From NCBI GenBank assembly GCA_038380435.1, contig JAWZYU010000010.1, forward strand, positions 49,650,135 through 49,714,134: a DNA stretch of 64,000 nucleotides. Direction: 5' to 3'. Positions 12,350-42,989 of the stretch are shown piece after piece. A program made the position numbers and the translations under genes. The stretch is from Ryuthela nishihirai. Its lineage: Eukaryota; Arthropoda; Arachnida; Araneae; Heptathelidae. The stretch's first letter is position 1, and each line of letters opens with the position of its first letter. The notes under the pieces are model-generated. The model was not told the DNA's origin. It saw nothing but the letters and a program-made list of their open reading frames with translations, and made no database searches.

Positions 12350-13620
12350 GAAACAAAATTACAACACCTGGAAGGATTATTGCCATTTTATTGAAATGCG
12401 GGCAGCTGTTAATATACACTGAGAAGTGCGATTGATTAGATTATCAAAAAAATGGAAAATTAGCACTTTACCTACACAATAAAGCAGTATAATTAGCATT
12501 ATGTTGAACCACCCCGCGCAGCAATGCATTTATGAACACAGCGGGGAAGGCTATAGCACAGCTCTGTAGTGTCCTCTTGAGGAATAAAATGCCAAATACC
12601 CCAAAGTCGCTCTTTATGTACCACTCAGCGACAGTGATTGGCAGTCCTCTTTGGAATTTTTAGAGCTGTCGGGTTATCATATCCCAGACGCAATAAAATC
12701 AAAGGTCCAGAGAGTGTGCTGGCCATGGTAGTTCCTGAATGTTTTGCCATACAGCCCCCATTAGTCAGTAGATACTGCTGACTAATGGGGGCTGTATGGG
12801 GACGGGAGTTTTCTTGCTGGTAAAAAGTGATGATGTCGCACACACTGGGTAGCGTTTCTTTCCCCTGGATGACGTCGAACACGTTGTCTACTGTCGTGCC
12901 GAGCAAGACAAAATCGAGATTCTTTAATAAATGCCACAGTACTCCACCCTTGTTCGTTCCAGTTCTGTCTCAGACGACATCACTGAAGACGTGCTTACAT
13001 GTGGGCAGATGTGAGGGGCAAACGTAGTACCGGACAATAGGCTCGCAATGAAAACAATAAAAGCCTGTTTATCGTACGCCTGGTAGGTATTCGTTGTGTT
13101 GTCTGTTGCCAGTCCCTTTGAAGTTGCTTTGTGGTCGCGAATCTGTCACGCAATGCCATGCGTCGCAAATGGTGGTCCTGTCGCTCCCTGGTCATATGTC
13201 ATCTTCCTGATCCTTGTTGGCGTATGCTGCATCCTTCTTGAACTCACTGGCGCATTATTTGTACGATTGTGCTGGGATTGCGGCCAAAACAAGGTTAGCC
13301 ATATTTCTGTACAACAAACCAGCTTCTCTAAGGGCGATGATTCTTCCACCCTCAAAGTCTATTAACTGTTGGAACGGCTGTTGATATCTGCGTAAGAGCA
13401 TCTTTTGCGGTTTAGAACAATTTCCACAACGTTTTGTCAACCAGGGAGCTTCGATTGCCTTTCTCTGTGTTGGATGTTCCGTATCTATGAAGTCAGCTTG
13501 CACCTGTCCATTCGTTTTGATCGTTCTGCAAATCCTAATCATTTCCATGCATTTCCATACACTACCCTGCCTCCTTAAATTTCGTGACATTTGCATAATT
13601 TCTTGCAAGTGTTGCATTTT
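12350..13620 (-). pseudogene. Tc1-like transposase fossil
   Basis: Minus-strand fragments in several frames follow Tc1 order. 13618-13500: a leader. 13195-12995: RERQDHHLRRMALRDRFATT, the second helix-turn-helix region. 13080-12900: unreadable. 12835-12780: ITFYQQENSRPHTAPISQQ, where Tc1 proteins have FQQDNARPHTA, so the catalytic Asp is replaced by Glu. Then LPWPAHSLDL in a shifted frame. Frame breaks are numerous, and a hairpin lies just after the PHTA motif. Terminal repeats were not identified with confidence. Confidence 0.72.
12747..12799. repeat. 24-bp-arm hairpin inside the Tc1 fossil
   Basis: The arms at 12747-12770 and 12776-12799 differ at one position. The right arm (plus strand) encodes the native PHTAPISQQ segment on the minus strand. 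The left arm replaces what should follow it, so it is the inserted inverted copy. Confidence 0.85.
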
Positions 13621-13639
13621 TTATTTCTTTTAGAGTATG

Positions 13640-16600
13640 TTCAGAAAATAAAGAAGCCACTCACAAAATATGGACCTTCTACTTCGGCTATTCCTAAGAG
13701 ACTGAATGAAAACCATCGAAAATAGAGCGTAGTACCTGTATTTCGGGTGTTAATAGAATTCTATTGAAGATAACCGAGGGGGACGTGCATTGACTTCTTT
13801 GAAATGGAAGCTTCCCTGGAAAGGTCCATAATGTAGTACATTCTAAACTTTGTGGGATTGTAAAGAGTAAAAAAAACGACAGTTAAGAAGGTGATATTCT
13901 AAATCCATAACAGCATATTTTATGTAATTTTGGTTTGTATTGTAATAATTTGTTTAAAAAAACTAACAAATTTATACTTTGGGAAGTATATTATTCCTAA
14001 TGTCTCTTCTGCCTCAGATCTGGTGAAGTCTCCTCGCACCCCTTAGAACATCCTCGCCGCTCTCCATTTCGTTCCACATTGAGAGCGATTTAGGTATTAG
14101 CAAAATGTCTCTGAGCTAACTTTATTTGTAAATATTTTCTCATTCTACTTTTTAACTGAAATGTTGCGAAATACCGTAAAAAGTGAATGTAATAAATTAA
14201 CATTATACACAACACAAATTTTCTAACATCCAATAACACTTAAAAAGCAATTTATTCATTTTGAAATTGAAACTTTTTTCCTTTTTCTTTGCGTTGTTAA
14301 TGAATTATGAGTATGTGAACACTTCTATGTTGTATGAATGAAAAGATCTGTTCAGTGCTCCCTATCTTTGAAATGTGCCTCTTATAGCAAAATATCACAC
14401 GAAATAAATTTAAAATCTTGATTAATTAATTTATTAATGTTAAATTTAAACTGACCTTTGTGACATGCAGCTGCTTGAATTAAAAAAAATCATTGGGATT
14501 TAAAACATTTTTTTCCTTTTAAAAATTTAAAAGGACATAATTTTGCTTCTACTTAAATAAAGAAATTTTAACACCTGAATATATTTGTCTACTACTCAGT
14601 TAAAGATTACCCAACAGACACATGCCTAGGGGTCCTTCCTTAGCAAGGCTACCTTGATAAAAGAAATAGGATGATTGGTAATAATAAAAAGGATCTTTTC
14701 ATATTTTTGGGTTCGAATAATTTTTTGTTGCATCAACACGTTCTACAGGTTATTAGAATTTCTCAATTAATTATTTAACAACCGGTTAAATGAAACCATT
14801 TCGCCAGATCTTTTGATGTTGTGCTTGAATCTTTTCCTACTTACACAAAGAATAATATCAATCAAGATTGGACATGGAAAGGTCTTGAACAAACACCAGA
14901 AAATTTTGCAATATTAAAATAATTGAAGTTTTGTCTAAAATTATAGCTAAATTTGAAAATTTAACTTAAAGTATTTATTTTAAAGTGCAATCAAATGCGA
15001 TAAGGTAGTTATTAAAATTTTAAAAATATATATGTAAAAATTAATAGTTACCTATATTTTAACCAGTTAACCTCTCTAGGTTACGTTAACTAGCAACTGA
15101 TTCGATTCACTCGGAGTGGCTCACCCAAAGAATCAAATGAGTCAAAAGAACGAATCTGTTTAATGACTCTTCTAAGTGAGTCCATTCAAAAAAAAAAAAT
15201 CGTTACCCATAGAGTCCCATAGTTTTAACGAAGGTATCGCAGTGCCTATATGAAAGAGGCCCGAAAACTCCAAAAACCCTGCCACGGGAAATTTTTTTTT
15301 GTCTGTAGCTGGTTTTGAACCAGATTTTGGTATCACGACACAAGCGACACTGCACGATGCCACAGTTTGAATTATTGTTTGAACCGGTGCCTACGTAATG
15401 AGAATGCCTGCGGATTTCAAGACGTGAAGCGACAGCAGAGCTAGTTACATTTTCGTCCACTTGGCGCTGGCGATTGCCTGTTTTGATTGTTACTTGCTTC
15501 GTAACAGTATAGGTTATTACGCTGTTTACTGCTTGCTTCAAAATTGGATTTTGATACGAATTTGTTCGTAAGTAATTATTTACTATTCTGTCTACTTTCT
15601 GCTGATTTTAACTAGAATTCTGAACGATGATGCAGTATTGTGTGATGTTTTGCAGAAGCGAAAGTCAGTTTCTATCGAATCTATTCCAAACTGGATCTGC
15701 AAGACAGGTGGCTGCACCAATATGTCGTTAACGTAACGATGACATGAGTAATTGGAAAAAAATTTCTGAGATCACTTTTGAATAAATAATATTTTGGAAT
15801 CGCAGAAACCTTTACAATATATGGAACTGAGTTACATTGCCCTAACAAAATATTAGAGAATTTCTGTGATATGTGAATGGGAATCTTAATATAAATTCAA
15901 GATTATAATTTTATCTATTTAAATCTCGATTTTCAACAGCATTCGTCTAGTATTTAAGGATTCATTATTCCCGTTTGTATCTCTGAGAAAGATTCTTGTT
16001 TATTGTACTTGATTAGCCATTTGTCTGATTCTTTCTTTCTCTCGACTTATCCTCGGATTTACCATGACTTCGACCAGATCGCTATATACTTACCATTAGC
16101 GTAGGCTAGCTTACCGCGGAACGGTGCTGCCCTCATGGGCGCGCTTGCTAACACGGAGAATCGCCGAAATTAGCAGGCATTTCCATTACGTAGGCACCGG
16201 TTTGAACGTAGCCGAATAGATCGCAGACAATCCAACAAGCATTGCCCTCTATCTTCTGAAATAGGTACTAGTGAATGACAGAACTGCAATTTATCGTTCT
16301 TCTTTGCCTATTTATCTATTAAATATTACCTAACCGTAACCAATACTGTAATTGGGTAATAGAGTTTTTCATTTGTATATATATATATCTTGGTTTAAAT
16401 ATGGTTGTTAATTTTAATGTAGTTAGGTAAGTTTTTAATTATTTAATATTATATACAGTGAACTTTTTTTTCCTCTATCACCTCTTGTGATCTTGGTATT
16501 AGGTCAGGATATTTCGTGTTGAGAGTAAAACGCTGCGATAATTAATATTGAATTTAATAAAAGAAAAGTAATTATTTCATACGCATATCGTGCTGGAAAG

Positions 16601-16880
16601 GAATTAGGTTTCGATGCAGTGTACAGCTCTCAGCCGTCAATTATTCCGTTTCACGTGCTAATCCAACGAAGTTGAGATGAAGCCCTAACATAAAAAGTAG
16701 TCCCTAACCACCAAAACCAAATAATCTCATTCAAGATATTATAATGAAGTTATATATCGGTAAACAACAAATCTCTATTTTGCACCTAAACTCCATTTTT
16801 AAAAACCCACATTGCTATGACATTAAAAACTAAATAATTAAGCGGATGGATAAATTATAATGCAGCCATTCTGGCGATTT
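13640..16880. other. Intergenic stretch with little recognisable content
   Basis: It is AT-rich and no exon is supported. 15310-15366 (minus) looks like a weak tRNA-derived head (B-box-like GGTTCAAAACC). 15824-16000 resembles one arm of the foldback family at 46160 (TTGCCCTAACAAAATATTAG). About 45 bases near 15375-15420 recur inverted near 16170-16210 (ACGTAGGCACCGGTTTGAAC). A (TA)n run lies near 16376-16388. Confidence 0.5.
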
Positions 16881-16891
16881 TTGGTGAAAAT

Positions 16892-16903
16892 CCAAGATGG
16901 CCG
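16892..16903 (+). promoter_or_regulatory. Possible YY1-type core promoter motif
   Basis: CCAAGATGGCCG fits the AAnATGGCSGC-type YY1 consensus common near animal transcription starts. It lies 107 bases before the ISXO2-type ATG. It is a short motif and could be chance. Confidence 0.25.
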
Positions 16904-17009
16904 TTGAGGGCCGTACATTGTACTTAATTTAGACTTCGGTATTTTTTGCTGTAAAACGTGGCTTTCAACATAATTTTTGTCTTTAGAGATATATTCAGAC
17001 GGTATTAAA

Positions 17010-18191
17010 ATGGCACAGTGTGGTAGTCTTATTAAGGCTGCAGAAATAACTCCTATGACAGAATGTACTATTCTTAATAAAGCTGCAGAAATAAGTCCTG
17101 TGAGAGAATGTAGTAGTCTTAGTAAAGCTGCAGAAATAAGTCCTGTGAGAGAATGTAGTAGTCTTAGTAAAGCTGCAGAAATAAGTCCTGTGAGAGAATG
17201 TAGTAGTCTTAGTAAAGCTGCAGAAATAACTCCTATGACAGAGTGTAGTAGTCAAATAACTGAAAATACTTCTCCTACATTGCTGAAACATTTGATTCTA
17301 CAATTTGCAAAATCTCCACTTGAAAGAATCCAATATTTGCAGAAGATGGGATTATTAAGCAAGGAATACAGCTGCCCTAAATGTCATAATTCAATGAAAC
17401 TAGCAGAAACAAAGACAATCACAGATGGTTATCGCTGGGTGTGTAGGAAGAGATATAAGGGTCAGCAGCATGATATCAATAGGAGTATAAGGAAAGGAAC
17501 TTGGTTTGAAAAGTCCAGAATGCCATTAGAACAGATTATGGAAATAGCCTACATGTGGGTTTTTAACTTTCCCCAGTGCATAGTTCGGCGGGAACTAGAG
17601 ATTGGATCAAAGCATACAACAGCTGATTGGTACAGCTTCTGTAGAGAAATTTGTGTAGATGCTGTGATTGCTAGGTCTCAACCAATAGGTGGGCGTGGCA
17701 AAATTATCGAGATTGATGAGAGCAAATTTGGATCCAACAAATGCCGAAGTGGAATATACGAAAAGGGTGTTTGGGTTTTTGGGGGAGTGGAAAGGGACTC
17801 TGATAAATGCTTTCTTGCTGTGGTTCTGGATCACTCATCTGATACCTTACTCACTGTGATCAAGGAGAAAATTTTACCCGGGTCTAGAATTTATTCAGAT
17901 TGCTGGAAGTCATATAATTGCTTGACAAAGAAAGATTTTGTCAACCTCAAGAATAGTCATTCTTTAGAGTTCATTGATTATGAGGCAGGGTGTTCTGCTA
18001 AAACAATGGAAAAAATGTGGCAGCATGTTAAATTAACTCTAACAAGAAGCAGTGTGGATGATATGTTTTTTGGCTATCTGGCTGAATTTATGTATAAGAA
18101 AAGGTTGAAAAACATTGCAGACCCTTTTCTTGAGTTTATTGCTGATATTAAAATGTTATATCCTCCAGCTGTCTGTGATGAACAGGAGTAA
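17010..18191 (+). CDS. ISXO2-like/Merlin-type DDE transposase, intact
   Basis: The protein is 393 residues from the ATG at 17010; the open frame extends 33 bases upstream without another ATG. Residues 5-79 are five 15-residue repeats (e.g. SSLSKAAEISPVREC). After a short linker come a zinc-ribbon-like C122-x2-C125 and C145, then SIRKGTWFEKS, typical of ISXO2/IS1595 proteins. The catalytic triad is complete: D236 (EIDESKFGS), D297 (IYSDCWKSY) and E334 (KTMEKMWQHVK). The 36 residues between the last two are as in Merlin elements. No stop or frameshift is present, unlike every other transposase here. A tttttgtctttag sequence ending at 16986 would serve as a splice acceptor, so a 5' exon is possible. 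I found no Merlin terminal repeats. It is either a recently active Merlin copy or a retained host gene. Confidence 0.87.
   Translation: MAQCGSLIKAAEITPMTECTILNKAAEISPVRECSSLSKAAEISPVRECSSLSKAAEISPVRECSSLSKAAEITPMTECSSQITENTSPTLLKHLILQFAKSPLERIQYLQKMGLLSKEYSCPKCHNSMKLAETKTITDGYRWVCRKRYKGQQHDINRSIRKGTWFEKSRMPLEQIMEIAYMWVFNFPQCIVRRELEIGSKHTTADWYSFCREICVDAVIARSQPIGGRGKIIEIDESKFGSNKCRSGIYEKGVWVFGGVERDSDKCFLAVVLDHSSDTLLTVIKEKILPGSRIYSDCWKSYNCLTKKDFVNLKNSHSLEFIDYEAGCSAKTMEKMWQHVKLTLTRSSVDDMFFGYLAEFMYKKRLKNIADPFLEFIADIKMLYPPAVCDEQE
17022..17246 (+). repeat. 45-bp coding minisatellite, five units
   Basis: Five in-frame 45-bp units encode the KAAEIxPxxEC repeats. The three central ones are nearly identical in DNA and the outer two diverge (ITPMTEC version), the usual picture of expansion from the middle. 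Confidence 0.92.
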
Positions 18192-19080
18192 ATCATATCT
18201 CAGTAAATATTCCAAATTTTTATTGTTTTTTTTTTATGCTGACTTTAAAATATAGTTTGATGTTTTTCTATGTTTGCAGATTTTTTGTGTTGGAGCAGTG
18301 TTTAGTAATATGCATTGTTATTGATTTGATGTTTCTAATGAAATTATTTAGAGCCAGAGTTATGTTTTAAATGCATAAACTAGGTTTTGTGCATTCTGAT
18401 TTTTTTAAAATACGTTTTGGTGTTTCCTTTTAGTGTGGAAATTCCATATTTATGAATATTAATCAAATATGTCTCAAGGTGGAAGTGACTATGCTTACTG
18501 TTAAAGACTATTTTGTCTTTGTGTCATTGTCCAGAGTATGCAGGGAGAAACAAATAACTGCTGAGGGGCTGTACACTGCACTTTTGCCAAGCAATGGTAT
18601 TTAACTAAAGTGAATGAGATATGACCATCACTAAAATGAACAACTGATATATTTCTCCACCTACCTTGAATATTTAAAGAAAAAAAAATGTAAATTTTAA
18701 ATTAAAATACAAAGAATGACAAAAGTAACATTGATATTCAGCATAGGCTCTTTGCTGATGTACATATTTCCCCAGAGATTGCTTCTTTAACTGTTTTGTC
18801 ATTGGCAAATATATTTTCTAAGTTTCTTTTTCTATTGATAATATAACCCTTTTTAAAGCATTTCATCCAAATAATGCTATATGTATCCTAAAAAATTATT
18901 TCCCTCAAGTTATGTCATGGATACAATCTTATAAAACCAAGTGTATCTCGAAAACACCTTGGGTAGAATTTTCCCATATAAGCCTAATGCCATAATGAAT
19001 GATGTGTTCTTAGTTCAAAAATTTCAATATAATCTTTATATAGTTATAGTGAATGTAGTTGATACATAGATGCACTAAAA
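18192..19080. other. 3' flank of the ISXO2-type gene, no features
   Basis: It is AT-rich and no further exon, element end or clear AATAAA close to the stop was recognised. An ATTAAA lies near 18700. Confidence 0.5.
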
Positions 19081-19109
19081 GTATAAGATAACAACTGAAA
19101 TATATTAGG

Positions 19110-19345
19110 AAGCAGGCCTGGTGCTAAAAAAAAATTGAGGAGGGGACACCAAGAAGCAATCGATCTTAAAAAATATATAAATTCCAATAAATTTCCAATG
19201 CAGTATAACATTTTCCCCTCCATTTTTGAAAAATACATTAAATTTAAATAAGTTTAATAATTTTTTCCCTCTATTACCCTTACTAGCATTCTAAAAGGTA
19301 TGTAAGTGATGCCTACCCACCCTAGATCAGGTCCTACTTACAAGT
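19110..19345. repeat. Unclassified medium-copy repeat
   Basis: It begins AGGCCTGGTGCTAAAA and ends near CCCTAGATCAGGTCCTA, a weak inverted pair. The block CCCTCTATTACCCTTACTAG recurs near 11280 and inverted near 49310. 47041-47090 starts similarly (caggctcggatctagaaaaa). Confidence 0.35.
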
Positions 19346-19544
19346 GTAAATAGGGTATTGGATGGCTTGACATCTGGATTTCTTTGGATGAGATAAGTGC
19401 CACACACCTATTATTATTATACTTATTATTATTACCTATTTCTCATGCTTATATAATTGAGGGTGGAGTTATATAAACATGAGGAATAGGTAAATCCAGA
19501 CCATAAAAAATTAATCTAAGTAAGGCCACATCTCGAATTGTGTC

Positions 19545-19850
19545 CTTCATTTTTCTGAACCATGACCTCCTGATAACATGTTGGGTGCTTTGACCCTTGA
19601 GCTACCAGCTGCCGAACAATTATCTTGTATTAGTGGCTCTAAGCATTATACCATAGAGTTAGTCATTAGAAATGTGTCTGACTGTAATTGAAGACTGCTC
19701 TAGAAGGCACTATATCATATAATGATAGTGCAAAAAATCATAAAATGTCAATAGGATGGTATTTTTTTTAAGCCAACATTCCAGGTATCAAGCATAAGTA
19801 TTAATGTTGAAATAATAGGAAATCACAGATGTGTACCTATTGGTGATATG
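19545..19850 (-). mobile_element. SINE-C copy, diverged
   Basis: 19580-19615 reads on the minus strand as a tRNA-like head (TGGTAGCTCAAGGGTCAAAG), and 19545-19580 as B-box-like sequence. 19803-19850 carries the family's 3' block (catatcaccaataggtaca, cacatctgtgatttc). The order of the parts on this strand is rearranged, so two fragments may be involved. Confidence 0.4.
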
Positions 19851-20165
19851 TTGAATAATATAGAGTAATAATAAAAATTACAGTAGAGGTTCACAGTGCA
19901 GTAATTAAAATTAAACTGAAATCTTTAATTCTCTATGACATTTATTATGTTAAATGTTTTTAAGATCAATAAATGTTCTCTGCTATCAAGTATCAAAAGT
20001 TATTAAGGAGAAATTTATATACCATACCACAGAGGATGGGTAGCAAGAGGAACTTCTGGGAATTTCTTACGGGCAAGTGACGCCTCAGTAGAATTTGAGA
20101 AGGCGATGAGGGATGCTGATAGTTTATTTGCTTAAGGTTTAGTGAAAGAAATAGCCACTAATACT

Positions 20166-20209
20166 TTTGGTAGCATAGAGTGCTTTATTAAGCACTCAAT
20201 GCTACCAAA
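20166..20209. repeat. 20-bp-arm hairpin
   Basis: TTTGGTAGCATAGAGTGCTT is followed, after four bases, by its reverse complement with one mismatch. It lies about 30 bases downstream of the hammerhead-like motif as read on the minus strand. Confidence 0.8.
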
Positions 20210-20239
20210 TTATACTATCATATAAGTTTTGAGTTCCAC

Positions 20240-20273
20240 GACGTGTTTTTCGCACCCTTGGGTGCATCATCAG
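20240..20273 (-). ncRNA. Hammerhead-ribozyme-like motif
   Basis: The minus strand has CTGATGA (20273-20267), a T, then GCACC-CAAG-GGTGC as stem II, then GAAA and ACACGTC. This is the order of a type I hammerhead with a very short stem III and cleavage after GTC (between 20240 and 20239). Flanking bases can form a short, bulged stem I (C:G, then TTC with GAA). The unpaired T between core and stem II is not canonical, and self-cleavage is untested. Such motifs are known from the terminal repeats of Penelope-like retroelements. Confidence 0.45.
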
Positions 20274-20387
20274 GTTTGAAGTGAGCAGCTTTAAATATTG
20301 CACGAGAGGCAGTTGGTTGTTAGTGATGGCTGTTTTCCTTTGCTTTCAAAACTATTAAGTTGTACATTGTCATTAGCAGTGTGGTAT

Positions 20388-20560
20388 CTGAACCCACTAC
20401 CTCCTCATAACACATAAGGTGCTCTCACCACTGAGCTACCAGACATCGAACAATGTGGGTTCAGATCCCACCCAGCTAATGACAGTTTTGCCTCTATATT
20501 CATTCTGCATATCACCAACAGGTGCATATCTGTGATTTCTTATTATTTCAATCTCAAATG
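20388..20560. mobile_element. SINE-C: two partial copies head to head
   Basis: 20370-20447 on the minus strand reads as a tRNA-like head (TAGCTCAGTGGTGAGAGCA, then GGGTTCAGATACC) and continues leftward into gctaatgaca. From 20450 the plus strand restarts at the B box (GGGTTCAGATCCCACCC), again passes gctaatgaca, and runs to the tail gcatatcaccaacaggtgca. The pair is partly palindromic. Confidence 0.55.
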
Positions 20561-20614
20561 AGTTTTGGAAGTCAAGTTTCTGAAGATAGATATTTTTAGG
20601 CAAATAAAAAACAA

Positions 20615-20875
20615 AGGTATTTTTTTTATTTACCTTCTTATATGCACCCTAAAATGTAGATGAAACTAAAGCTTATTTATAGTGCATGCAGTCACTGAAT
20701 TGATATTCACTTCAAAGGAAGATAGATGGGTGCTAATTTACCTACTCAACAAAAATTGCTGGTGCTCTATCTTCCTTTGAAGTGAAAACAAATTCAATGA
20801 CTGATTGCACCATTGATATGCTGTAGTTTTATTTTCTGCTTTTTAGAGTGCATTTGGGAAGATAAGCATTTTTTT
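20615..20875. mobile_element. Foldback element, about 115-bp inverted arms
   Basis: The arms are about 20615-20740 and 20763-20875. The inner parts (TTCACTTCAAAGGAAGATAG and complement) are identical; outer parts are diverged but alignable (tatgcaccctaaaa against aatgcactctaaaa). The short loop is AT-rich and there is no coding capacity. Confidence 0.7.
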
Positions 20876-22472: not shown

Positions 22473-22864
22473 GTTTAGGGGTTTTAGGGTCCATGTCAAT
22501 CAGCCTGTGTTTGGGGGCCTAAAACCTCTGGCCTAAAAACCCCTGGTCTAGGGGTTTTTAACTTTCACTAGGGGTCATAAACTTTCTGCGATGCAGAATT
22601 ACAGGATCCAGGAGAGTCTCTCCAATTTAACAATACCAGTTCTGTGTGGTATTCTAAAGTTGTATTATACTCCACTGTCAACATTGATTGCATCTTGTAT
22701 AAGTTGCATGATTGTACTGCTTTAGTTGTTAAACTTTTTACCTCTAGTATTACATTTACTATGCATCAATTTTCTGCAATTAAATTACTTTTTCTTTTCT
22801 ATTTATAGTGTTTTAATTGATTTCTCTTTATAGAAAATGAAAAACAGTGGCTGCAAAAATCTAA

Positions 22865-23794
22865 ATGGAGTCATGTAAACAGTCTAATATGATAGATAGT
22901 GAAGGCTTTACTAAAGTTGTGTGTCGCAGAAGAAAACGAAGCTCTGCTAAGCATAATTGGGAAGCACTATGCTTAAGTAAAGAAACTGATATACCTAATG
23001 CACATGAACTTAGTGATACATTAATTGAAAAACTATCAGCTATCACAACTGAGATATCATGCTCAGAATATTTCAATAATTGTAAGGTACTGATTTTTAA
23101 GGCATTTATAATTCTAGGTGTAGACTGTAGTTATTCAAGCATTGCTTCATCATGCAAAATTGGTTTGCCACATGAAAATGAACAAAATCTGCTGTTCCAA
23201 GGTGAAAAATGTGTAGTTGACATTGTGTGTTATGGACTAGGAGGATTTTTGTCTTGTGTGAATGCACAATATCAGCTTGGTTTTCTTTTACAACTAAAGG
23301 TTTTATTAAGTGCTGAAGTTTATGTTTATGATCCAATATTTAGTGATGTTGAAAAGAACATTTTGAAAAAATTGAACCTTCATATTTTGCAACTTAATGA
23401 AGAGGGTAAAAGGCCAGTAGAATCACATACAATATTTTTTATGCCTCATTGTGGGAAGCCTCTGTACAACAGTGTATTATGGGCTAATTGGTCTGTAGAG
23501 CGATTGTGTAAAGTTATAATTATTGGTAACAGTTTCGAAAGCATTGTAGAATCCTCTCCGGAGAGACATCTAATGCAACATGTACCTTATATTTTTCGTT
23601 CTCGACAAGTTACCCAAGAAATTCCAATTCCAAATATTTTTAGGTTTTCTGATATATTTAATAACTTATCTGTTCATATATTTGAAAAGCAAAAGATGAT
23701 TTCACTACCAGATGAAATGTGGTTAGATTGTGAAGAGCCACATTACACTTCAGAAGATGAAATAATAGTTAATTCTGTGAGATTTCCACAATAA
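22865..23794 (+). CDS. SRRD: SRR1-like protein, single exon
   Basis: A 309-residue uninterrupted frame from an ATG in AAATGG context. The Lys/Arg-rich N terminus with SEGFTKVVCRRRK (12-24) fits SRR1/SRRD proteins. The SRR1 domain carries the family's landmarks: VCYGLGGFLSCVNAQYQL (121-138), VYDPIFSDVE (154-163), FFMPHCGKPLYNSVLWANW (191-209) and IIIGNSF (218-224). Arabidopsis SRR1 acts in circadian and phytochrome signalling; the animal homologue's biochemistry is poorly known, so I assign family only. A 14-codon upstream ORF (22837-22878) overlaps this start out of frame, and a splice-acceptor-like tttctctttatag ends at 22833, so a 5' non-coding exon is possible. No frame damage is visible. 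No poly(A) tract marks it as a retrocopy. Confidence 0.87.
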   Translation: MESCKQSNMIDSEGFTKVVCRRRKRSSAKHNWEALCLSKETDIPNAHELSDTLIEKLSAITTEISCSEYFNNCKVLIFKAFIILGVDCSYSSIASSCKIGLPHENEQNLLFQGEKCVVDIVCYGLGGFLSCVNAQYQLGFLLQLKVLLSAEVYVYDPIFSDVEKNILKKLNLHILQLNEEGKRPVESHTIFFMPHCGKPLYNSVLWANWSVERLCKVIIIGNSFESIVESSPERHLMQHVPYIFRSRQVTQEIPIPNIFRFSDIFNNLSVHIFEKQKMISLPDEMWLDCEEPHYTSEDEIIVNSVRFPQ

Positions 23795-23866
23795 GTAGTG
23801 TTTTTTAAAAACTGCTGGTGAGTTACATGAGTTTTTTTTTGTGAGTTATGGCTGTTTAGCTTATGT

Positions 23867-26985: not shown

Positions 26986-26989
26986 GTGT

Positions 26990-27690
26990 CAAATGTAATA
27001 TCTTTGGTTACATTCTCATTTTTAGGGATCATTTTCTGGTTGAAATTTAAATATGGGGCAACTTTCGGCTAAAGGCAGTTATACATAATGTCACAGTGAC
27101 ATGCTGCTTTTCATAACCCGTTTTCATGATCTCTTTAGCACCTTTATTGTTTGTATAATTTTGAGGCATATCGAAGAACCCCCGGGTTTCGTCTACATTT
27201 CATATTAGACTAAACTTGGTTTCATTTTTTCCTCAATTGAATCACATGAAACAGCTTTCGTTCAAAGTCTGCAGGAAGTTTTTGACAAATACACATTCGA
27301 TGCCTTAATGATAATCCTATATGGTGCATGAATCGGCCACACCAACTTCTCGTTTCTTTGAAATTTCTTTCATGTATTCCGAGGGAGTTGACAATTTCCT
27401 CTTGCCTTTTCATTTCTTGCATATGATAGGCAATCTTTTTTCATCTCTCTCAGTAACAAAATGTAATACAGCTTCATCTACTTGTGGTTACTTTCCTTAA
27501 GTCCCGTAAAGCACTTGGTTGTTGCTTTTTAAGAGAATAGGGAATACGGTCATTTCTACAATGATGAATATTTGTTTCACTAATACCAAATTTATGGCCA
27601 GCAGGCCTTAATTTTGGTATTAGTGAAGGCCTGTTTCCATGTATTTTCTGTATACATAAGTTTCTTTTCAATGTAGCATAGTGTAATTTT
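26990..27690 (-). pseudogene. Pogo/jerky-type transposase fossil (N-terminal half)
   Basis: Minus-strand fragments in changing frames follow pogo-type order. 27671: an N-terminal HTH region (AGHKFGISETNIHH, RNDR). Then SWCGRFMHHIGLSLRHR and ICQKLPADFERKL, the CENP-B-type second helix-turn-helix. Then FFDMPQNYTNNKGAKEIM and GYEKQHVTVTLCITAF, leading into the DDE domain. Several stops and frameshifts are present and the catalytic core is lost. It is a different lineage from the 4-6 kb Tigger. Confidence 0.72.
27579..27633. repeat. Inverted duplication inside the pogo fossil
   Basis: The CACTAATACCAAA arm at 27579 recurs inverted, ending at 27625, and CAGGCCTT/AAGGCCTG flank the second arm. On the minus strand the extra 24 bases add exactly eight in-frame codons between GNRP and AGHKFGISET, so the inverted piece is the insertion. 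Confidence 0.75.
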
Positions 27691-28233: not shown

Positions 28234-28364
28234 ATTAGTATTCTAAAAGGAAATTAATACTACGAGGTTGATACTACGCAACGATGAGCATTTCATTGCG
28301 ATTTACCCTTTTTGGGTCGATACTTTGATGACAATAGCGGGAGGAGGGGGTGGGCGAAGATTTT

Positions 28365-28640
28365 AGGCGTTTTCCCAATTCCTGAGGGTTGGGTTTGGCT
28401 GAAATAGCGCAGGACTCGTAATCTGCAGTTCCAAGGTTCGAATCCCAACTGTGCCTGGGTTGAGAATTTTCTCACCTAATTCCTGTTCTGCCTTCGGAGA
28501 GAAAGGAGGCGTCAATGGATTTGGAAAGGCAGCTGTGAGACGGGAGGTTAAGCCACGGCTTCGTATGCAAGAGAACTGCTGCTACTTAGTGGCTTTTGCC
28601 CCATGCTGAAACTTCCTTCGGCTGCAAAACTCGGCGAAAA
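28365..28640 (+). mobile_element. SINE-A-related copy within the left arm, 3'-truncated
   Basis: The head is GGCTGAAATAGCGCAGGACTC with CGTAATCTGCAG and B box GGTTCGAATCC. The body follows the family to cgtatgcaag and then diverges. It is mirrored at 38460-38690. Confidence 0.65.
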
Positions 28641-28696
28641 TATCTGCAAGGAAAAGTTATTTTTGCTTATCAGGCTCCTGTCGGACCTCTGTGGCA

Positions 28697-28755
28697 AGCA
28701 GCTGCTTGAGGGGCTATTTATTTTTATTTAACCTTTCACCAATGATTCGCCTCTC
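28697..28755 (+). mobile_element. SINE-B tail-only insertion
   Basis: GGCTCCTGTCGGACCTCTGT to the TTGAGGGGCTATTTATTT tail interrupts sequence that is continuous in the right arm, so the insertion postdates arm formation. Confidence 0.75.
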
Positions 28756-28774
28756 TAAGGAATTGTAAGACGCC

Positions 28775-28809
28775 CTGAAGATGACTGCTGAGTGCAGTCG
28801 AAAGCGCTC
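28775..28809 (+). ncRNA. Hammerhead-ribozyme-like motif, left-arm copy
   Basis: CTGAAGA, a T, then GACTGC-TGAGT-GCAGTC (perfect 6-bp stem II), GAAA and GCGCTC, with GCC before the core able to pair with GGC after the cleavage site. The arrangement matches the 20.2-kb motif, including the extra T. Downstream AT-rich sequence (gtgtaaataaaactaacc) resembles retroelement ends, but no Penelope reverse transcriptase was found. Confidence 0.45.
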
Positions 28810-29186
28810 GGCTCATACAAGCATGTAAATAACACATTGCAGTACTTGTGTAAATAAAACTAACCGGGGAAAAAAAAACCTTATCGATTCTTAAGAGCCA
28901 TGCCCTGTCCACGTTAAAGAACACTCTGAATGGCCTTGACAGGAAGCTTCCATCCAGTGGCGAAGCATGACATTTTGAGTAGGGAAAGCAATTGTCAAGA
29001 GCAGTGCTGCAATTAAATCGAAACGCTGTTCAGATACCTGATATTTACGAATCGATGAGTGAGTGTTGTTCTATATTTTTTAAATCAAACATTGATATTA
29101 TATACTGTATAGTCTAGTAACGAGGGGAGGGGATTTGCGAGTGCAATCTCTATCATGAAGAAAGTTTTTTTAAGAAACTGTTCATT

Positions 29187-29395
29187 GGCGTTCCGGTGGC
29201 CGAGTGGTTAGCCCATTTGGCTACAAATATGAACCTGAGATCGAGCCCCGGATAAAAGGCATAAATGTTTTCTTTCTGATGGGAGTGGGACCTCGCCTTT
29301 CTCACAAACCTTCCTGATGTCTTATTATATTGATATGCTCCTGTCAGATTTCTGTGGGGAAGCAGCTGTTTGAAGAGGAATTTGTTTGTTCATTT
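29187..29395 (+). mobile_element. SINE-B copy in the left arm, full length
   Basis: The tRNA-like head CGGTGGCCGAGTGGTTAGCC and B box GATCGAGCCCC are followed by the body and the tail gaagcagctgtttgaagagg. Mirrored at 37345-37560. Confidence 0.8.
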
Positions 29396-29671
29396 GTTCA
29401 CTAACTGGTATTAATAAAAACAATAACAAAATTTTTGAAAAACCCCATGTTTCCTAATATTTTGGCCAATCTTCGCTACGCCACTTTGTATGTGAATAAT
29501 TCGTAAATTTTATTTGTCTTACTTTCTATAAAATTGTGTGTGCGCTTGAATAAAGAAAGGCATTATTGTTATTAAAAATACAGTGCACTTTCTCCTTGGA
29601 ATGCTGAAATCTATAAGCACACGTGTGGAAGTTGCCAAAATTTTTCGCCATCATTCCTTTGCTAGATTTCA

Positions 29672-29922
29672 ATCGTTTTACCTATGAACAACATTTTTAT
29701 GCGTAAAATAGGTTAAAGGTCCAGGTCCCAAGGGCTCGGTTAAATTGGGGAAAGGGATCCATTGGAGATTTGTTAGGAGACAGACGGAAATCTCCCTTTA
29801 AAATCATTCAACGTACACAGGGTTGTCCTGAGCATGGATTCACGACTTTCGATCTCATCCAGCGGACGGCGGTATTTCCAAACCCAACGGTGTCCCCTTC
29901 CTCGCCGATGGCAAAGTAATAT
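29672..29922 (-). mobile_element. SINE-A copy cut by the LINE 3' end
   Basis: It is recognisable from CGTTTTACCTATGAACAAC to gccgatggcaaag. The tRNA-like head is missing, replaced by the LINE tail at 29928. Confidence 0.7.
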
Positions 29923-29927
29923 TATCA

Positions 29928-31330
29928 TCATCTTCAAGCAGCTATGGACCACGGAGGTCCAACCAGACCGTGCAATTTAGTTCTTCAAGCATTTCTGTGC
30001 TGAGCTACGTCTGCTGTTTCTGGCCACTGCAAACCAATTCTAACAAGGTCCTGTTTGACATTGTCTGCCCACCGCATCCTAAGTCTCCCCCTCTTTCTGA
30101 GGCCTTTAGGCACACTGTTCATAACCCTATTCGCTGTCTATAATTTTCCATACGGTCAGCATTGCCAAACCTCAGTAATCTCTCTATGCACAAAATAGTG
30201 CTCAAAGGAGGTTGATGACTCTTCTAACCTCATAATTACTTACAAAGTTAAACCACCTAACGCCAAAAATACTGCATAAGCATCTAGAATCAAAAGCATC
30301 AAGTTTCATGTTGTTTACAAAGCATCCAAGTTTCACTACCACAACTAACCATAAAAAGAACCAAACTATTATACAGTCTAATTTTAGTCTTTAGGGTGTA
30401 TACGCCTGTTCCTACACAGTCTTCTAAGATTCCTAAAAGTCCCAGAGGCAATCCCTATTCGCCTGTTAATCTCATGCTGCACATCAGTATCTGTTACACA
30501 GCTCCCAAAATAATTAAACTGAAACACATGGTCAAGGGTGCAACCATTCAGAGCGACTGAAGCAACAACTGCCTGACCAGTTTTCATCACTTTAGTTTTA
30601 TCTCTTACTGGTATAGAGTCGGTTTATCACCAAACCGACTCTATTACCAGTCTCATCAACATCCCTAATGAAAGAATTCATCTCATCAACATACCTAATG
30701 AAAGAATTCTTTCATCAACATCATTAGCCAAAAGGTCAAATCAACTGCATAATCTAAATAGAAATTTTGAAATCTCTAGACCATTTAAGTCCAAAATCTT
30801 TCCCTTCCAAAGAATTTCATACAATATAATCAATAACCAAACTAAAGAGAAAAGGAGGCAAAATGTATCCTTTTGGAACACCAGAAGCGATGCTAAAACA
30901 ATTGCTACAAGCCGTATCAACTCTTACACGTGACTCGGTGTTATTATAGAGAGCTTTCATTATGTTAACTAACTTGTCTGGTATGCCATACAATCAACCA
31001 CAAATTATGACAATCAATAGAGTCGAAAGCCTTTTTTAAATCAACAAAGCTAGCAACCAAAGGTTTCTGAAACTCTAAAAACATTTCTCAAGAATCTGCC
31101 GAAGTGAAAATATCTGATCTACACATCCCCTACCACTTCTGAATCCACATTGCTCATCACGAAATTGCTTGTCAACCAGATTCTTAATTCTATTAAGCAG
31201 AATCATGCAAAGAACTATCTGGAACAGAAATTAGGATGATACCCCTTTATCACAAGAATTGCGATCACCTTTTTTAAAAATAGGGAAAATCTCAACGTTG
31301 ACACAGTGGGGACTGAAGCCTGGGAACATC
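29928..31330 (-). pseudogene. LINE (non-LTR retrotransposon) reverse-transcriptase fossil
   Basis: Minus-strand translation gives RT landmarks in order: IFPIFKKGDRNSCDKG (near 31270), FVDLKKAFDSID (motif A, near 31030), then LDYAVDLTF where a YADD-type active site is expected (near 30750; one Asp of the pair is Val). Then come ANDVDE, TKVMKTGQAVV, HVFQFNYFGSCVTDTDVQHEI, IASGTFRNLRRLCRNR (30590-30384) and RRRWADNVKQDL near the C terminus. Frameshifts and stops are frequent. The 3' end is gacctccgtggtccatagct-gcttgaa followed by a GAT-type microsatellite. The clade could not be fixed from these motifs. Confidence 0.8.
30608..30650. repeat. Hairpin inserted in the LINE fossil
   Basis: CTGGTATAGAGTCGGTTT and its complement are separated by six bases. 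On the minus strand ETGNRVGLVIN should continue into KTKVMKTG; instead about 20 bases complementary to the preceding codons intervene. 30655-30715 also holds imperfect direct repeats of catcaacatccctaatgaaa. Confidence 0.78.
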
Positions 31331-34300
31331 AGAACACTACTATGGTAGCTACAAACTCCATATGCTGAAACGCAAAGGCTGTTCTGATTGCTTTTGACAG
31401 GCAAGTCACAAAAATAATTGAAAGAGATAATAAGCTTACAAATGTTTGTATTGTGTAGATTTGAGTGGGACCCTTTCAAAATTCTACAAAAGGAAAAAAA
31501 ATTCAAAATGAAGTAGAATTGACAAAATATTAATTTTATTCTAATTTAATTTCGACTAAATTCAATATTCTAAATTTAATTCATTGCACTACAGTGTAAA
31601 ACCAACATTATATCATTAATATTGACTAAATTCTATTTTAAGTAAATAGTGAAAGAATCAAAAGACGAATGCAAAAACCAGAGTTAATGAAGAAATTATA
31701 GATATTTAATTTTTTACAATTTTCACCCATTTGTTTATCATAGTTCGTTTTCAAAAACACCCTTCTGTTTTTATGTGTTCGGAAAATATTCAAGGGCCAA
31801 AGAAATATATTTCGCCGCAGACAGCTACTTTAGTAGCCCTGAAACAAACTAATGTTTCAAGAATAATATTTTTACCACAGATGAATATGCTGCAATGAAT
31901 TTATGATAAACGTGTCATGAACGCTCGCGTATGCTTCTGCGTGAAAATTAGGTTATCAGCTGTTTAGAACGGAGATACTTTGAATAATAAGATTCGTAGA
32001 GGAAAAACAAAAAGGTGTAGTGAAGAAATAAGAATATATTGTATTAAATTAGTGTGTTACGTAAGAAGACTTATTATTTGAGTGAAAGTGAACCTGGTTC
32101 CAGTGGTGAAAGGGAATCAACAGCAAAGTTATTTTTGGGCCCTCTATCAGGAGAGATCAACGTTAGATGTTTCGCATCTATAAGATATAAAGCATTATTA
32201 TGGTAGTCCTCTAACACAAATGAAATTCAATAAAAATTGGTTTGTTTGTTGGATGTTACAAAGTAATAGGTTCTATTTTGTCATAGGAACTGAATATTGA
32301 CAGCATTGTGGTTTAAACATTGAAAATTAGTTAAACATAGTAAATCGTTCTTTTTATTTTTTGACTTTATGCTAAGAGGAATAGAAATACTTGTGTATAA
32401 TATTTGTGCTTTTGTAATAAATTACTTCATTCATACTTTAGTATACATATATACTAGTTTTGAACTCACGCTAAGTTTTCATCTGTTTGAATTCATATCA
32501 ATTGGTGTCAGGAGCAGGATAATTTAATTGAATGCCTTTTACTAGAGGTATAATGCCTATAAGTAATAGTTTGGCAATCGTCAATAGCCTAGCCATTAAA
32601 AAGTGGTCCAAATAATGGTTCCCTACCGAAAGGGGTAGTAGAGTCGCATTATAACTTCGTACATGCGCAGTGAAAAGATATTGGTATAGTACCGTTTTAC
32701 GCCTAATTACTCCGCCACAAGTAGTTCTAGACAGGAAAAAAGTAGTTCTACATGAAAAATGATATCGCGAAACATTATGGGCATAAAAAAACATGACACT
32801 CTATAAGAAGCTAAAATATTTCATTAGTTTCCTCCAGAAATTTAAATATTAAGAATTAGCTTGCATAATAAAAAATTGTTTAACTGAGGTGTCATCCTTT
32901 CAAATCCCATTTGTACATCCATTTTAATTTGATAAGTGTAAAGTGAATAAAACTTTAATTTGTTTGATTTATTTAGCGTAATTGATCATTTATAGAAGTT
33001 TCAGGGCAAGTTGTAAATTCCAGTGTTGCTATGTTTAACGTTATGAAAAGGAGATAATTATATAGTTTATATTTGCTCATATTTAACCTCACGTGACATT
33101 TAATAAATTTCAAGTACAATTTGCTGAATACTGTGTCGCCGTAAGAAATTCAGCTCGCCGTGGCTAAAATATAAAGCGGCAAGGCATGATCGCGTCCATT
33201 GTACTTTTAACTTAGTAAGGTGTGCTTTGCATGCGGCATCTTGAAAGCGATAGGAACCGCTAGCCTCACGATTGCAACGAAAAGTTTTAAAAGTATTTTT
33301 CTTAGTATAACAACTTTCTTTTGCACAGTGCAGTTAAGACGAAAATTTTTAAGAGTAATATTTAGAATTTTAGATTCTACTCAAATATAAATAAATCACT
33401 GAGGTTTTGTTTTTACGTTTAAGAACTTTCAAGACTAATATGCATTGTGGGTACGGTAAAGCTATTATTGGTTCCTGTCAACTCCATGACCTATGTTCCA
33501 GTACTTAACGGTAATAAAATGCTCTGGCATTCAGCACGGGATGGTAACAGCGTTTAACAATCCTTCATCCTTTCCTGGACCACTTTGTAAAAGGGGCCGC
33601 AGCCCCTTTACCATCTGGTCCAATCGCAAAATTCAATTTTGGGCGCTGTAAGCAACAACTGGCGGGACCAGGACCGTAAAGTGCTGGCTATCCCACTTTT
33701 CGGTGATTAGGCTTAATGGCTCGCAGGTCGCCTAGATTCGTTGAAAAATGAAAAAAAAAAAGAAGCAAAGGGAAGCTGCTATGTCGTAAAAAGTGTTAGA
33801 GAGTGGTGAGGAGTAGTTAAAATATCTTCCATGATGGAGGGTGAAATGTATAATGCTTTTTGTGGGACATACTGTGAGTTGGTGTCAATAAGATAGATTT
33901 TAGCGCTTGCGTTGCGTTACACAACGTAGCATAACTACCTAGGAAATGGGATCGACTGTAGTATGGGATTGAGATAGTTATAAATTTTTAATGGTGTGGG
34001 GGAGGAGGGGTCTGGGGTCTTTAATAGGGGTGGAAATTTGTACCCTGGGGGGCTAAGATAGAACTTTTATATTCTTTAAATCCTCTTGCATTGGAGGGAG
34101 TTAACTGTAGAAATGGAATTCTTAGGGGGTAGAGGGACCTTTAATTAACTGTCCTTAAAAATTTTAAAATGTGCTATTAATTTAATGGGGATGTGAATTG
34201 AGCTATATGGGGGTAAGGAGATGGTTGTTAGCCAGTTAGATTAGCAATGCTAATGAGGTGGAATGCAGTGAAGTAGACTTGAAGGGGTCCAGTGCAAACT

Positions 34301-34430
34301 GTATTCCTTGTGAATTAAAGGATATTTGATACCATAAATGTTTTTTCCATGTAGTGAGGGGTAAGGGGGTTATGGGGGTCTGTTTATGACTAATTGATGT
34401 ATTCAGAGTGGTGGAGTGGGTGTTGTGGGT
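31331..34430. other. Spacer within the large inverted repeat
   Basis: No gene or classified element is supported. 33576-33621 is a hairpin (GGACCA and AAAGGGGC with their complements). 32085-32170 has an open, Ser/Glu-rich frame without splice or start support. A retrotransposon LTR could lie here, but I could not find matching termini. Confidence 0.5.
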
Positions 34431-34440
34431 TGAGAGGGGG

Positions 34441-34556
34441 TAATAAAAATTTGAATTAATCAATAGGTTAGTGCATTTCAATACAGAATAATCATGATAC
34501 TGATAATTTGTAGTATTGAAATGATCTAACCTGTTGGTTAATTAAAATTTTTATTA
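34441..34556. repeat. Hairpin 1 of a pair sharing the same loop
   Basis: The 44-bp arms 34441-34484 and 34513-34556 have about five differences. The loop contains AATAATCATGATACTGATAA. Confidence 0.82.
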
Positions 34557-34611
34557 CTTGATGTATATTTTATAATTTGAAGATGTGACAATTAACATAC
34601 GTACAATATGT

Positions 34612-34829
34612 GACGTTTGGACTCGCCAATTGTAATAGAAGTCGTGCGTAAATATCCTTGTAAATTAAGCAATTTAAAACTTTATAATTGGCTAAACAAT
34701 AAAAAATAATCATGATACTAATAACTTGCATTCTTGTTTAGCCAATTACAACGTTTTAAATTGCTTTTGCAAATTTACAAGGATATATACGCCATAAGAC
34801 TTCTATTACAAGTGGCGAGTCCAAACGTC
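34612..34829. repeat. Hairpin 2 of a pair sharing the same loop
   Basis: The arms 34612-34699 and 34734-34829 are unrelated to those of hairpin 1 (GACGTTTGGACTCGCC.. outermost). The loop contains AATAATCATGATACTAATAA, one difference from the loop of hairpin 1. Confidence 0.82.
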
Positions 34830-35099
34830 GCATGTTAGAACATATGTTACATCACGTGTCATTCGAAGAGTTTACCAAAGAGCCAGTCAAAACTATCACA
34901 TAAAGAGAAATGCGGTTTGTTTTGATCGAACGGCCATCAATTTTCTTCGTTTTAAAAAAATATACTTGCTCAAGCTTTCTCTAAGTTTTACTAGTTCAGT
35001 TAAAATACTTAGGAATAATGTGCATTTGAATGGTAAAATCATTGCATAAATGCTTCTATGTTTAAAAGTCATCGAAAAGCGAAACTTCCATAGAGGATA

Positions 35100-36997
35100 A
35101 TGTTAACAAGGCAAGAATATCGTTCCCAGCGCTCTCTACTGGTATGGGACACTTTTCTGCCAGATTTTAATAGGCGAATGCCACACTATACTTATAGGCA
35201 CTATACTAGAGGTGTGGATGAGTTAATAAAGCTGATGACTGATATTAGAGGTGATATAGCTGTCCAAAGCAGCAAAATTGGTGAACTTTCTATTCAAAAT
35301 AATGACATAAACAGTAAAATTGATGAACTTGCTAGTCAAAATAATGACATAAACATTAAAATTGGTGACCTTGCTAGACAAAGTGATGACTTGAAAGCCG
35401 AAATGGCTACACAAAATAATAAGTTGAGAGCTCAAGTGGCTTCTCAAATTAGTAAGATTACTGATCAGAATAATGATCTGAATATAAAAATCAGTGAAAT
35501 CACTGACCAAGTTAGCTGTAGTACATGCTAAAATTTCTGCAGCAGAATTTCTTAAGAAACTGCAAGAAAAACTGCTCTTCTGGAATTCATTCCACTCATT
35601 AGTTCTGGAACGAATTAGCTCTGGTTAATGAGTTGAGAGCTGAAGTGGCTTCTCAAATTACTGATCAGAATAATGATCTGAATATAAAAATTAGTGAAAT
35701 CACTGATCAAGTTAGCTGATCAATGTAAAGACATTTAAGACCGAACTCAAGAGTGTAAAAGATGATCTTGATAGTGTAATGTTAGATTATAAACATGAAA
35801 TTGAAACTATAAAAACTGATTGTGAATGCCAGTTTCAGATTTTAAGAAATGAAATAGTACCTTCTTGTGATAATGGTAATTTTAGTGACAATAATGTTTT
35901 TACACATATCGCTAGAAATACAATTAAATCTTCTACATATGATAGTCAATCATCTTGGACAATATTCAAAACACAGTTTGAAGTTATCGCCAGCTAATGA
36001 GTAGAATGAATTCCAGAAGACCAGTTTTCTTGCAGTTTCCTTAAAAAATTCTGCTGCAGAAGTTTTAGTGTCTGTTCCAGAAGAAAAACGACTTGATTAT
36101 CAAAATCTGGTTTTTGCATTAGAACTCAGGTTTGGTGATAGTTATTTAAAACAATACTATGTGACACAATTTAAACATCGTATGCAAAAGAGTGGTGAAA
36201 CTTTGCAAGAACTTGTTAGTGATGTTGAGCGTCTAGCTAGATTGTTTTATAGTAACTGTCTACCAGAAATTCAAGATAACTTAGCTCAATTACAATTTAT
36301 TGATGCTGTTGCTGACCCTGAGACTCAACAATCTCTGAGGATGTTGGAAGATGAAACCTTAAAGTTAGCTGTGGTACATGCTATGAAGTACGAGTGCTCT
36401 AGACTTTCCTCCCGATCCAACAAACGCACAATGAGATTTGTGAATGCAGAAGAAACTGTAGAAAAGGATAGTGAAATGAAAGAACTAACCAAAGCCTATT
36501 ATCCGTTTTGAAAGAGATTAAAGGTCCCTCTCCAAGAACTTCTACAAACATAATATTGGAATTGTGGCAAGACTGGACACATTCGAGCGAACTGCAAAAA
36601 GTTGTGAGTACAAAGTTCAAGCACGTCTAACAGACAACAGAACCAGCATAAGCAATGTGAAGGGCAAAGGCTGTATGTTGATTGGTTGGCTCCAGGGGAA
36701 GTCGCCCACCTTTCAGCACTACATAGTGCAGATCACGGATTGGTAGCCGATGGAACCATGAATAAAGTTCCTTGCCGTATGATAGTAGACACTGGTGCAA
36801 ATGTAACTTTACTCAGAACAGACATAATAAAGAAGATAATATCTCACACAAACTGGAATGCTAGACAGTCTAATATAACCCTACAAACAGCCACTGGAGA
36901 TCGTACTAAAATTCATGGACAGATAGAACTCAACATCAGAGTTGGTAGCCTGTCTCCTAACAACTTTCTAATGGATCTCTTTCCTCAATTCAACTGA
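35100..36997 (+). pseudogene. LTR-retrotransposon gag and protease remnant
   Basis: 35100-35531 encodes a Gag N terminus with an Asn/Ile/Lys-rich coiled coil (repeated QNNDINIKIxEL units). 35779-35997 and 36068-36511 continue Gag, including VPEEKRLDYQNLVFALELRF and a conserved C-terminal helix region. In the same frame as the last piece, past a stop at 36509, lies a zinc knuckle (36554-36595; pattern x-x-x-C-x4-H-x4-C, its first Cys replaced by Tyr). Another stop at 36605 follows, then an aspartic protease with IVDTGANVTLL from 36686. The element ends abruptly at about 36996 against SINE-A sequence. No reverse transcriptase, integrase or LTR was recognised. It is of the Ty3/Gypsy-like gag-pro type, multiply broken. 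Confidence 0.78.
35528..36070. repeat. Inverted duplication within the gag remnant
   Basis: About 70 bases at 35998-36070 (native Gag sequence) recur inverted at 35528-35603. Between them, 35628-35718 is also a direct second copy of 35427-35520. The two copies together suggest one complex replication-switch event. Confidence 0.8.
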
Positions 36998-42972: not shown

Positions 42973-42989
42973 CTCTTCACGGGTTGCGT

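What the first reader, a model, noticed from the sequence alone, without database searches (positions are those of the whole stretch)
12747..36070. Recurrent local inverted duplications, a template-switch mutation signature
Four coding fossils of different origin (Tc1 12747-12799, pogo 27579-27633, LINE RT 30608-30650, gag 35528-36070) each carry an inverted copy of adjacent sequence. The conserved protein order shows which arm is the insertion; in pogo it adds exactly 24 bases, in frame. Non-coding hairpins at 613, 7190, 7867, 20166, 34441 and 34612 look the same. The elements are unrelated, so the genome's replication or repair, not one transposon, is the likely cause.
Basis: partly seen in the sequence, partly recalled or inferred. 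Interest (0 to 1): 0.78.

Follow-up and report, generated by a model that had tools for sequence, protein, structure and literature searches.

The report
Fold-back copying scars in dead transposons
Several dead transposons and nearby non-coding stretches in this animal-like DNA carry short mirror-image copies of the sequence beside them, which fits a known kind of DNA copying or repair slip; nothing yet shows that this genome makes the slip unusually often.

Summary
The hairpins are real and far beyond chance: 10 tight hairpins score 30 or more, against a mean of 0.07 (maximum 1) in 30 shuffles. For Tc1, 3 of 3 relatives lack the extra arm. For LINE, 11 of 24 alignments lack exactly the joined 5-residue insert and 3 of 24 show no gap. 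The pogo insert is 24 bases and in frame, but its polarity rests on recall. In all three the extra arm starts at a short inverted match (up to 6, 4 and 4 bp), as expected for fold-back priming. gag fits one longer-range switch. Three of the six 'same-looking' non-coding hairpins (7190, 34441, 34612) form another, MITE-like class. The mechanism is published. A cross-species yardstick gives 2.31 bp/kb here against a metazoan mean of 4.55, but it counts only one of the four coding hairpins; a rough great-ape yardstick points the other way. The own-genome search did not complete (15 tries), so uniqueness of the arms and the genome-wide rate are untested.

The parts
12747..12799 (-). Tc1-like transposase fossil, tight hairpin: source arm 12775-12799, extra copy 12747-12762 (16 bases beyond the AGTCAG/CTGACT match), loop 3 (9 at the presumed fold)
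   Evidence: extra stretch absent from 3 of 3 relatives; fossil identity by P0001-P0003 and PF01498 E 9.9e-9
27576..27631 (-). pogo-like transposase fossil, tight hairpin: source arm 27576-27599, extra 24 in-frame bases 27608-27631, fold core GGCC-AGCA-GGCC 27596-27607
   Evidence: fossil identity by P0004 (DDE_1); polarity from a recalled pogo N-terminal pattern, no relative found
30606..30651 (-). LINE reverse-transcriptase fossil, tight hairpin: source arm 30632-30651, extra copy about 30606-30621 (16 bases, one templated base missing), fold core GTTT-GGTGAT-AAAC
   Evidence: most relatives have a gap between the GLVIN and KTKVM positions; RVT_1 E 1.2e-5, below its curated cut-off
35417..35718 (+). 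gag-like fossil: first copy A 35417-35518, inverted copy C' 35528-35602, unexplained joint 35603-35625, second copy A' 35626-35718
   Evidence: A/A' 89 of 93 (95.7%) and C/C' 70 of 74 (94.6%) identical outside gaps; gag identity weak (PNMA E 0.003, below cut-off)
35994..36068 (+). gag-like fossil: source C of the inverted copy, in the frame that continues into the open stretch 36068-36511
613..685 (.). tight non-coding hairpin, 34 of 37 columns, loop 1
   Evidence: six-frame Pfam scan of 199-1102 gave nothing above a curated cut-off
7867..7926 (.). tight hairpin, 24-bp perfect arms, 26 of 27 with extension, loop 6
   Evidence: six-frame Pfam scan found nothing above a curated cut-off
   Evidence: six-frame Pfam scan found nothing above a curated cut-off
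20166..20209 (.). tight hairpin, 19 of 20, loop 4
7188..7419 (.). MITE-like fold-back, spacer 97, arms 84%; contains a small perfect palindrome at 7331-7352
20630..20865 (.). MITE-like fold-back, 78% arms overall but innermost 21 bp perfect, spacer 39
34440..34557 (.). MITE-like fold-back, spacer 28, arms 89%
34593..34849 (.).

Best explanation
The tight hairpins (Tc1, pogo, LINE, and probably 613, 7867, 11854, 19432 and 20166) are scars of independent local fold-back events. A 3' DNA end, at a stalled fork or a resected break, pairs with a short inverted match a few bases upstream, copies the strand back for some 16-30 bases, is released and rejoins the original template or the other end. This leaves a reverse-complement insertion next to its source. 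The gag case is the same logic at longer range: a jump of several hundred bases, a 75-base inverted copy, then a return upstream that copies about 100 bases twice. Shown here: the inverted copies, their statistical excess, the polarity in Tc1 and (in most relatives) LINE, short inverted matches at the fold points, similar divergence of the two duplicated parts in gag. Inferred: that those matches were there before the event, the polymerase, the trigger (fork or break), the germline timing, and that the non-coding tight hairpins arose the same way.
For: Hairpin excess: 10 against 0.07 at score 30 or more; 6 against 0.08 for perfect arms of 13 or more. Extra arm absent from 3 of 3 Tc1 relatives. 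LINE: 11 of 24 spanning alignments have exactly the joined 5-residue gap, 10 more have another gap at or just upstream of it, 3 of 24 have none. Fold points AGTCAG-9-CTGACT, GTTT-6-AAAC and GGCC-4-GGCC; the 16-base Tc1 copy is an exact reverse complement and starts exactly beside the match. Extra lengths of 16, 16 and 24 fit published spectra: in the gold-standard subset (1503) of 4017 great-ape events the copied length has median 12 and maximum 128, and 65% lengthen the sequence (PMC7954356, section 8 part 1); yeast fold-back insertions are mostly 5-34 bp and use microhomology (PMC11724301, abstract and section 15). The eight tight hairpins have arm identities of 92-96%, with perfect cores up to 24 bp, so they need not be of one age.
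Against: No second genome or same-genome copy was seen, so the state without the arm is inferred from distant proteins (25-44% identity). Three of 24 LINE alignments show no gap. pogo polarity has no relative behind it. The LINE and Tc1 queries were joined by me across frame changes, which sets the apparent gap length. The fold-point matches are now part of the arms; in Tc1 the residues coded by CTGACT are matched by only 1 of 3 relatives each. The gag joint 35603-35625 is unexplained, the region has older tandem repeats, and the gag call itself is weak.
Confidence: 0.8

Rival explanations
1. The hairpins are MITE or fold-back transposons, or pieces of them, inserted into older elements.
For: Five inverted repeats with spacers of 23-97 and arms of 36-119 columns at 78-89% identity (7188-7419, 20630-20865, 34440-34557, 34593-34849, 39124-39218) look like this.
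Against: In Tc1, pogo and LINE one arm is the element's own coding sequence, so the hairpin cannot have arrived whole. Seven of the eight tight hairpins were compared with the rest of the window and had no other copy (19432 was not compared).
Confidence: 0.1
2. Library, amplification or assembly artefacts made the inverted copies.
For: Perfect palindromes are a known artefact class (recalled). Raw reads were not available. In Tc1 and 7867 the only mismatch lies beside the loop, so these two give no sign of age.
Against: The other six tight hairpins have 1-3 differences within their arms and the gag duplications are 94-96% identical outside gaps, which a copy made at sequencing would not show.
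Confidence: 0.06
3. Inverted arms are homogenised afterwards by quasi-palindrome correction, so perfect arms do not mean recent insertions.
For: 20630-20865 has a perfect innermost 21 bp inside arms that are 78% alike overall; conversion of near-perfect into perfect inverted repeats is described in the introduction of PMC7954356 (passage).
Against: It needs an existing inverted repeat and does not explain the extra coding stretch in Tc1, pogo and LINE.
Confidence: 0.25
4. This lineage has a raised rate of fold-back mutation, for example through a repair bias.
For: A rough great-ape yardstick (4017 events; tree length and alignable bases are my assumptions) predicts about 0.4-1.6 events of any size per 64 kb at 10-30% divergence; about eight tight hairpins and one long event are seen. 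The published inverted-repeat density that puts the window below the metazoan mean counts only 1 of the 4 coding hairpins (LINE), because it allows spacers of at most 8 between perfect arms.
Against: The authors suspect that the true great-ape rate is higher than reported. The divergence here is unknown. The one published cross-species density gives no excess: 2.31 bp/kb against a metazoan mean of 4.55.
Confidence: 0.2

Closest known systems
Short-range template switch mutations (four-point model; PMC7954356, PMC8794818)
   Same: Reverse-complement copy of adjacent sequence, hairpins created in one step, insert sizes in the published range.
   Different: Seen here in one genome without a close relative, with polarity from distant protein relatives, in dead transposons; the gag jump spans several hundred bases.
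Microhomology-primed fold-back insertions at double-strand breaks in yeast (PMC11724301)
   Same: Short inverted match, hairpin, templated inverted insertion of tens of bases, rejoining with little homology.
   Different: There induced breaks in yeast with a 41-base loop in the case described; here inferred old germline events with loops of 4-9.
Polymerase theta end joining with templated insertions in Drosophila and C. elegans (PMC2895639, PMC4490562)
   Same: Insertions copied from flanking DNA, in Drosophila in direct and reverse-complement orientation.
   Different: The passages describe shorter inserts (average 5.5 bases in wild-type flies) and, in worms, small deletions; no enzyme was tested here.
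MITEs and other fold-back elements
   Same: The class with long spacers resembles them.
   Different: Tight hairpins in coding fossils do not: one arm is the host element's own codons.

Membership tests
Short-range template switch mutation | Inverted copy of nearby sequence beyond chance | tested here: met
Short-range template switch mutation | Ancestral state without the copy, from an aligned relative | tested here: inconclusive
   At protein level met for Tc1 (3 of 3) and in most alignments for LINE; no relative for pogo; no DNA relative for any
Short-range template switch mutation | Significance under a four-point pair model against a closely related genome | not testable with these tools
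   own-genome search not answered (15 tries); no related animal genome in the collections offered
Microhomology-primed fold-back insertion | Short inverted match at the fold point, present before the event | tested here: inconclusive
   Matches of up to 6, 4 and 4 bp found; prior existence is inferred from the reading frame, and for Tc1 only weakly
Polymerase theta end joining | Dependence on polymerase theta | not testable with these tools
   needs an experiment
MITE (the long-spacer class) | Terminal inverted repeats with target-site duplication | tested here: inconclusive
   Inverted arms present; flanks of five elements and of 613 printed, no clear duplication seen by eye
MITE (the long-spacer class) | Many copies in the genome | not testable with these tools
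   genome search not answered; no second whole copy in the window for those compared

The most novel reading that the evidence does not exclude
This lineage accumulates microhomology-primed fold-back insertions several times more often per substitution than great apes, with loops of a few bases and arms of about 19-37 bases, so that its dead transposons act as dated recorders of a lineage-specific repair or replication habit.
Probability: 0.2. Interest if true: 0.62.

Novelty: new member of a known kind. Interest (0 to 1): 0.33.

Why it matters
If the rate proved high genome-wide, dead transposon coding regions would give a polarity-resolved way to count fold-back mutations in species without close relatives, because the protein family tells which arm is new. 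As it stands it is a set of worked examples of a known mutational process, with fold points and insert sizes readable base by base.

Tried and rejected
Whole-window six-frame annotation was left out for cost. Pfam scans of pogo N-terminal pieces gave no family, and scans round 613, 7867 and 11854 gave nothing above a curated cut-off; a passing idea that 7867 lies in a Harbinger fossil is therefore not supported. A PDB search with the pogo piece gave only chance-level matches. Viral contigs and phage records gave no pogo relative. A direct-repeat control (53 pairs of 13 bp or more) was dominated by tandem arrays; judged by eye, only 2 pairs (2144 and 4354) lie outside arrays, against 6 inverted pairs. 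The human palindrome catalogue (PMC7680136, passages) uses other criteria and was not used for rates. A post hoc idea that coding fossils are richer in hairpins than the rest was dropped. Of the 43 inverted repeats I aligned and classed 16 places and one more; most long-spacer ones beyond 36 kb were not studied. Left out of the tight count: 7323-7359 (inside a MITE-like element) and 22534-22560 (11-bp arms). 20368-20484 (27 of 30, spacer 57) fits neither class well.

On re-reading I raised the novel case from 0.17 to 0.20, because the published density yardstick turned out to count only one of the four coding hairpins.

Full report
What was checked. The window is 64 kb of AT-rich DNA (GC 0.30-0.49 in 2-kb steps) with transposon remains, long open frames of a DDE_1 transposase at 4230-6027, an IS1595-type transposase frame at 16977-18191 and an SRR1-domain frame at 22865-23794. 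The finding claims local inverted duplications in four coding fossils and six non-coding places.

Existence and chance. The ten inverted repeats are present. Perfect arms of at least 13 bp with loops up to 60: 6, against a mean of 0.08 and maximum 1 in 60 local dinucleotide shuffles; at least 18 bp: 3 against 0. Two of those 6, and one of the 3, lie in MITE-like fold-backs. A gapped scan anchored on loops of 0-8 gives 10 hairpins scoring 30 or more, against a mean of 0.07 and maximum 1 in 30 shuffles, and 26 against 4.5 at score 20. Of those 10, eight are tight hairpins outside larger palindromic elements (613, 7867, 11854, Tc1, 19432, 20166, pogo, LINE), one is the MITE-like 34440 and one sits inside the long palindromic stretch 42601-43332. 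Low-complexity arms were dropped before these counts.

Two classes. Alignments separate the eight tight hairpins (loops 1-6 in seven, spacer 12 in 19432; arms of 19-37 columns, 92-96% identical) from fold-backs with spacers of 23-97, arms of 36-119 columns and 78-89% identity. One repeat, 20368-20484 (27 of 30, spacer 57), fits neither well. I classed 17 places of the 43 that one search lists. The neighbours 34440-34557 and 34593-34849 share about 40 inner bases (33 of 40) but not their outer arms, which I cannot explain.

Polarity and fold points. Tc1: in an alignment with three full-length relatives, 3 of 3 lack the fossil's extra stretch between YLLT and the LPWP motif. On the minus strand the 16 bases after CTGACT are the exact reverse complement of the 16 bases before AGTCAG, with nine bases between the two matches. 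Whether all of CTGACT was ancestral is open: its two residues are each matched by 1 of 3 relatives. LINE: for 24 of 38 found proteins a local alignment spans the place; 11 have exactly a 5-residue gap there, 5 have 3, 1 has 7, 4 have gaps placed upstream, and 3 (P0011, P0024, P0035) have none. The gap length depends on how I joined the frames; the DNA shows about 16 extra bases. The fold core GTTT-GGTGAT-AAAC lies inside the fossil codons for GLVIN. pogo: the 24 bases 27608-27631 are in frame and follow the fold core GGCC-AGCA-GGCC. That PAGHKFGIS is the old part is recalled from pogo-type transposases; the only relative found, P0004, covers other parts.

gag. The inverted copy 35528-35602 matches 35994-36068 at 70 of 74 aligned bases, and the flanking direct copies 35417-35518 and 35626-35718 at 89 of 93. 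The similar divergence suits one event: leave after A, copy C in reverse, return before A. Against this, older 42-base tandem repeats lie just upstream, the joint 35603-35625 is unexplained, and the family call is weak (PNMA E 0.003, below cut-off).

Mechanism and precedent. Great-ape comparisons give 4017 such events; in the gold-standard subset of 1503 the copied length has median 12 and maximum 128, and 65% lengthen the sequence (PMC7954356, section 8 part 1; passages). Yeast breaks acquire fold-back insertions primed by microhomology (PMC11724301, abstract and section 15). Hairpins made in one switch are described in PMC8794818 (abstract, opening text and outline). Templated insertions, in both orientations, are frequent at Drosophila breaks (PMC2895639, passages), and templated inserts occur at worm transposon breaks (PMC4490562, passages). 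I therefore place the finding inside a known kind.

Rate. By the published definition (perfect arms of 10 or more, spacer up to 8), the window has 6 inverted repeats covering 2.31 bp per kb, against a mean of 0.37 in 60 shuffles (maximum 1.53). The published means are 1.91 for eukaryotes and 4.55 for Metazoa, with AT-rich repeats dominating in eukaryotes (PMC13155455, abstract, passages and sections 8, 9 and 16). So this measure shows no excess. It is a poor measure of the finding, however: of the four coding hairpins it counts only LINE, and of the other four tight ones only 11854. A great-ape yardstick points the other way, 0.4-1.6 expected events of any size, but rests on assumed tree length, alignable bases and divergence. 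The question is open. In the rows listed by my literature searches I saw no arthropod-wide survey of template switching; that says nothing beyond those listings.

Limits. The own-genome search did not complete, so I could not test whether the arms are unique to these copies, whether the long-spacer hairpins are repeated, or what the genome-wide rate is. The species was not identified. 'Animal-like' rests on the element types and on named hits such as Chionoecetes opilio and Blattella germanica; other hits carry bacterial names, which I take for contaminated records without having tested it.

Noticed in passing
34440-34557 and 34593-34849: Two neighbouring fold-back hairpins share about 40 bases of their inner part (33 of 40) while their outer arms differ.
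   Followed up: partly
20630-20865: A 236-base fold-back whose innermost 21 bp are perfect while the arms as a whole are 78% alike, as if the inner arm had been re-copied.
   Followed up: partly
42601-45006 and 49564-50201: Long, diverged palindromic stretches and related blocks, perhaps a fold-back or SINE-type family.
   Followed up: no
16977-18191: An open IS1595-type (ISXO2-like) transposase frame with a 45-base tandem array in its N-terminal part (17019-17253).
   Followed up: partly
4230-6027 (-): A DDE_1 transposase frame and, upstream of it, a frame with a weak CENP-B-type match (below its cut-off); no hairpin lies in them.
   Followed up: partly
22865-23794 (+): An open SRR1-domain frame, possibly a host gene or retrocopy.
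   Followed up: partly
47096-47866, 54409-54902, 62150-62683: Long short-period tandem arrays that are open in one or more frames.
   Followed up: no
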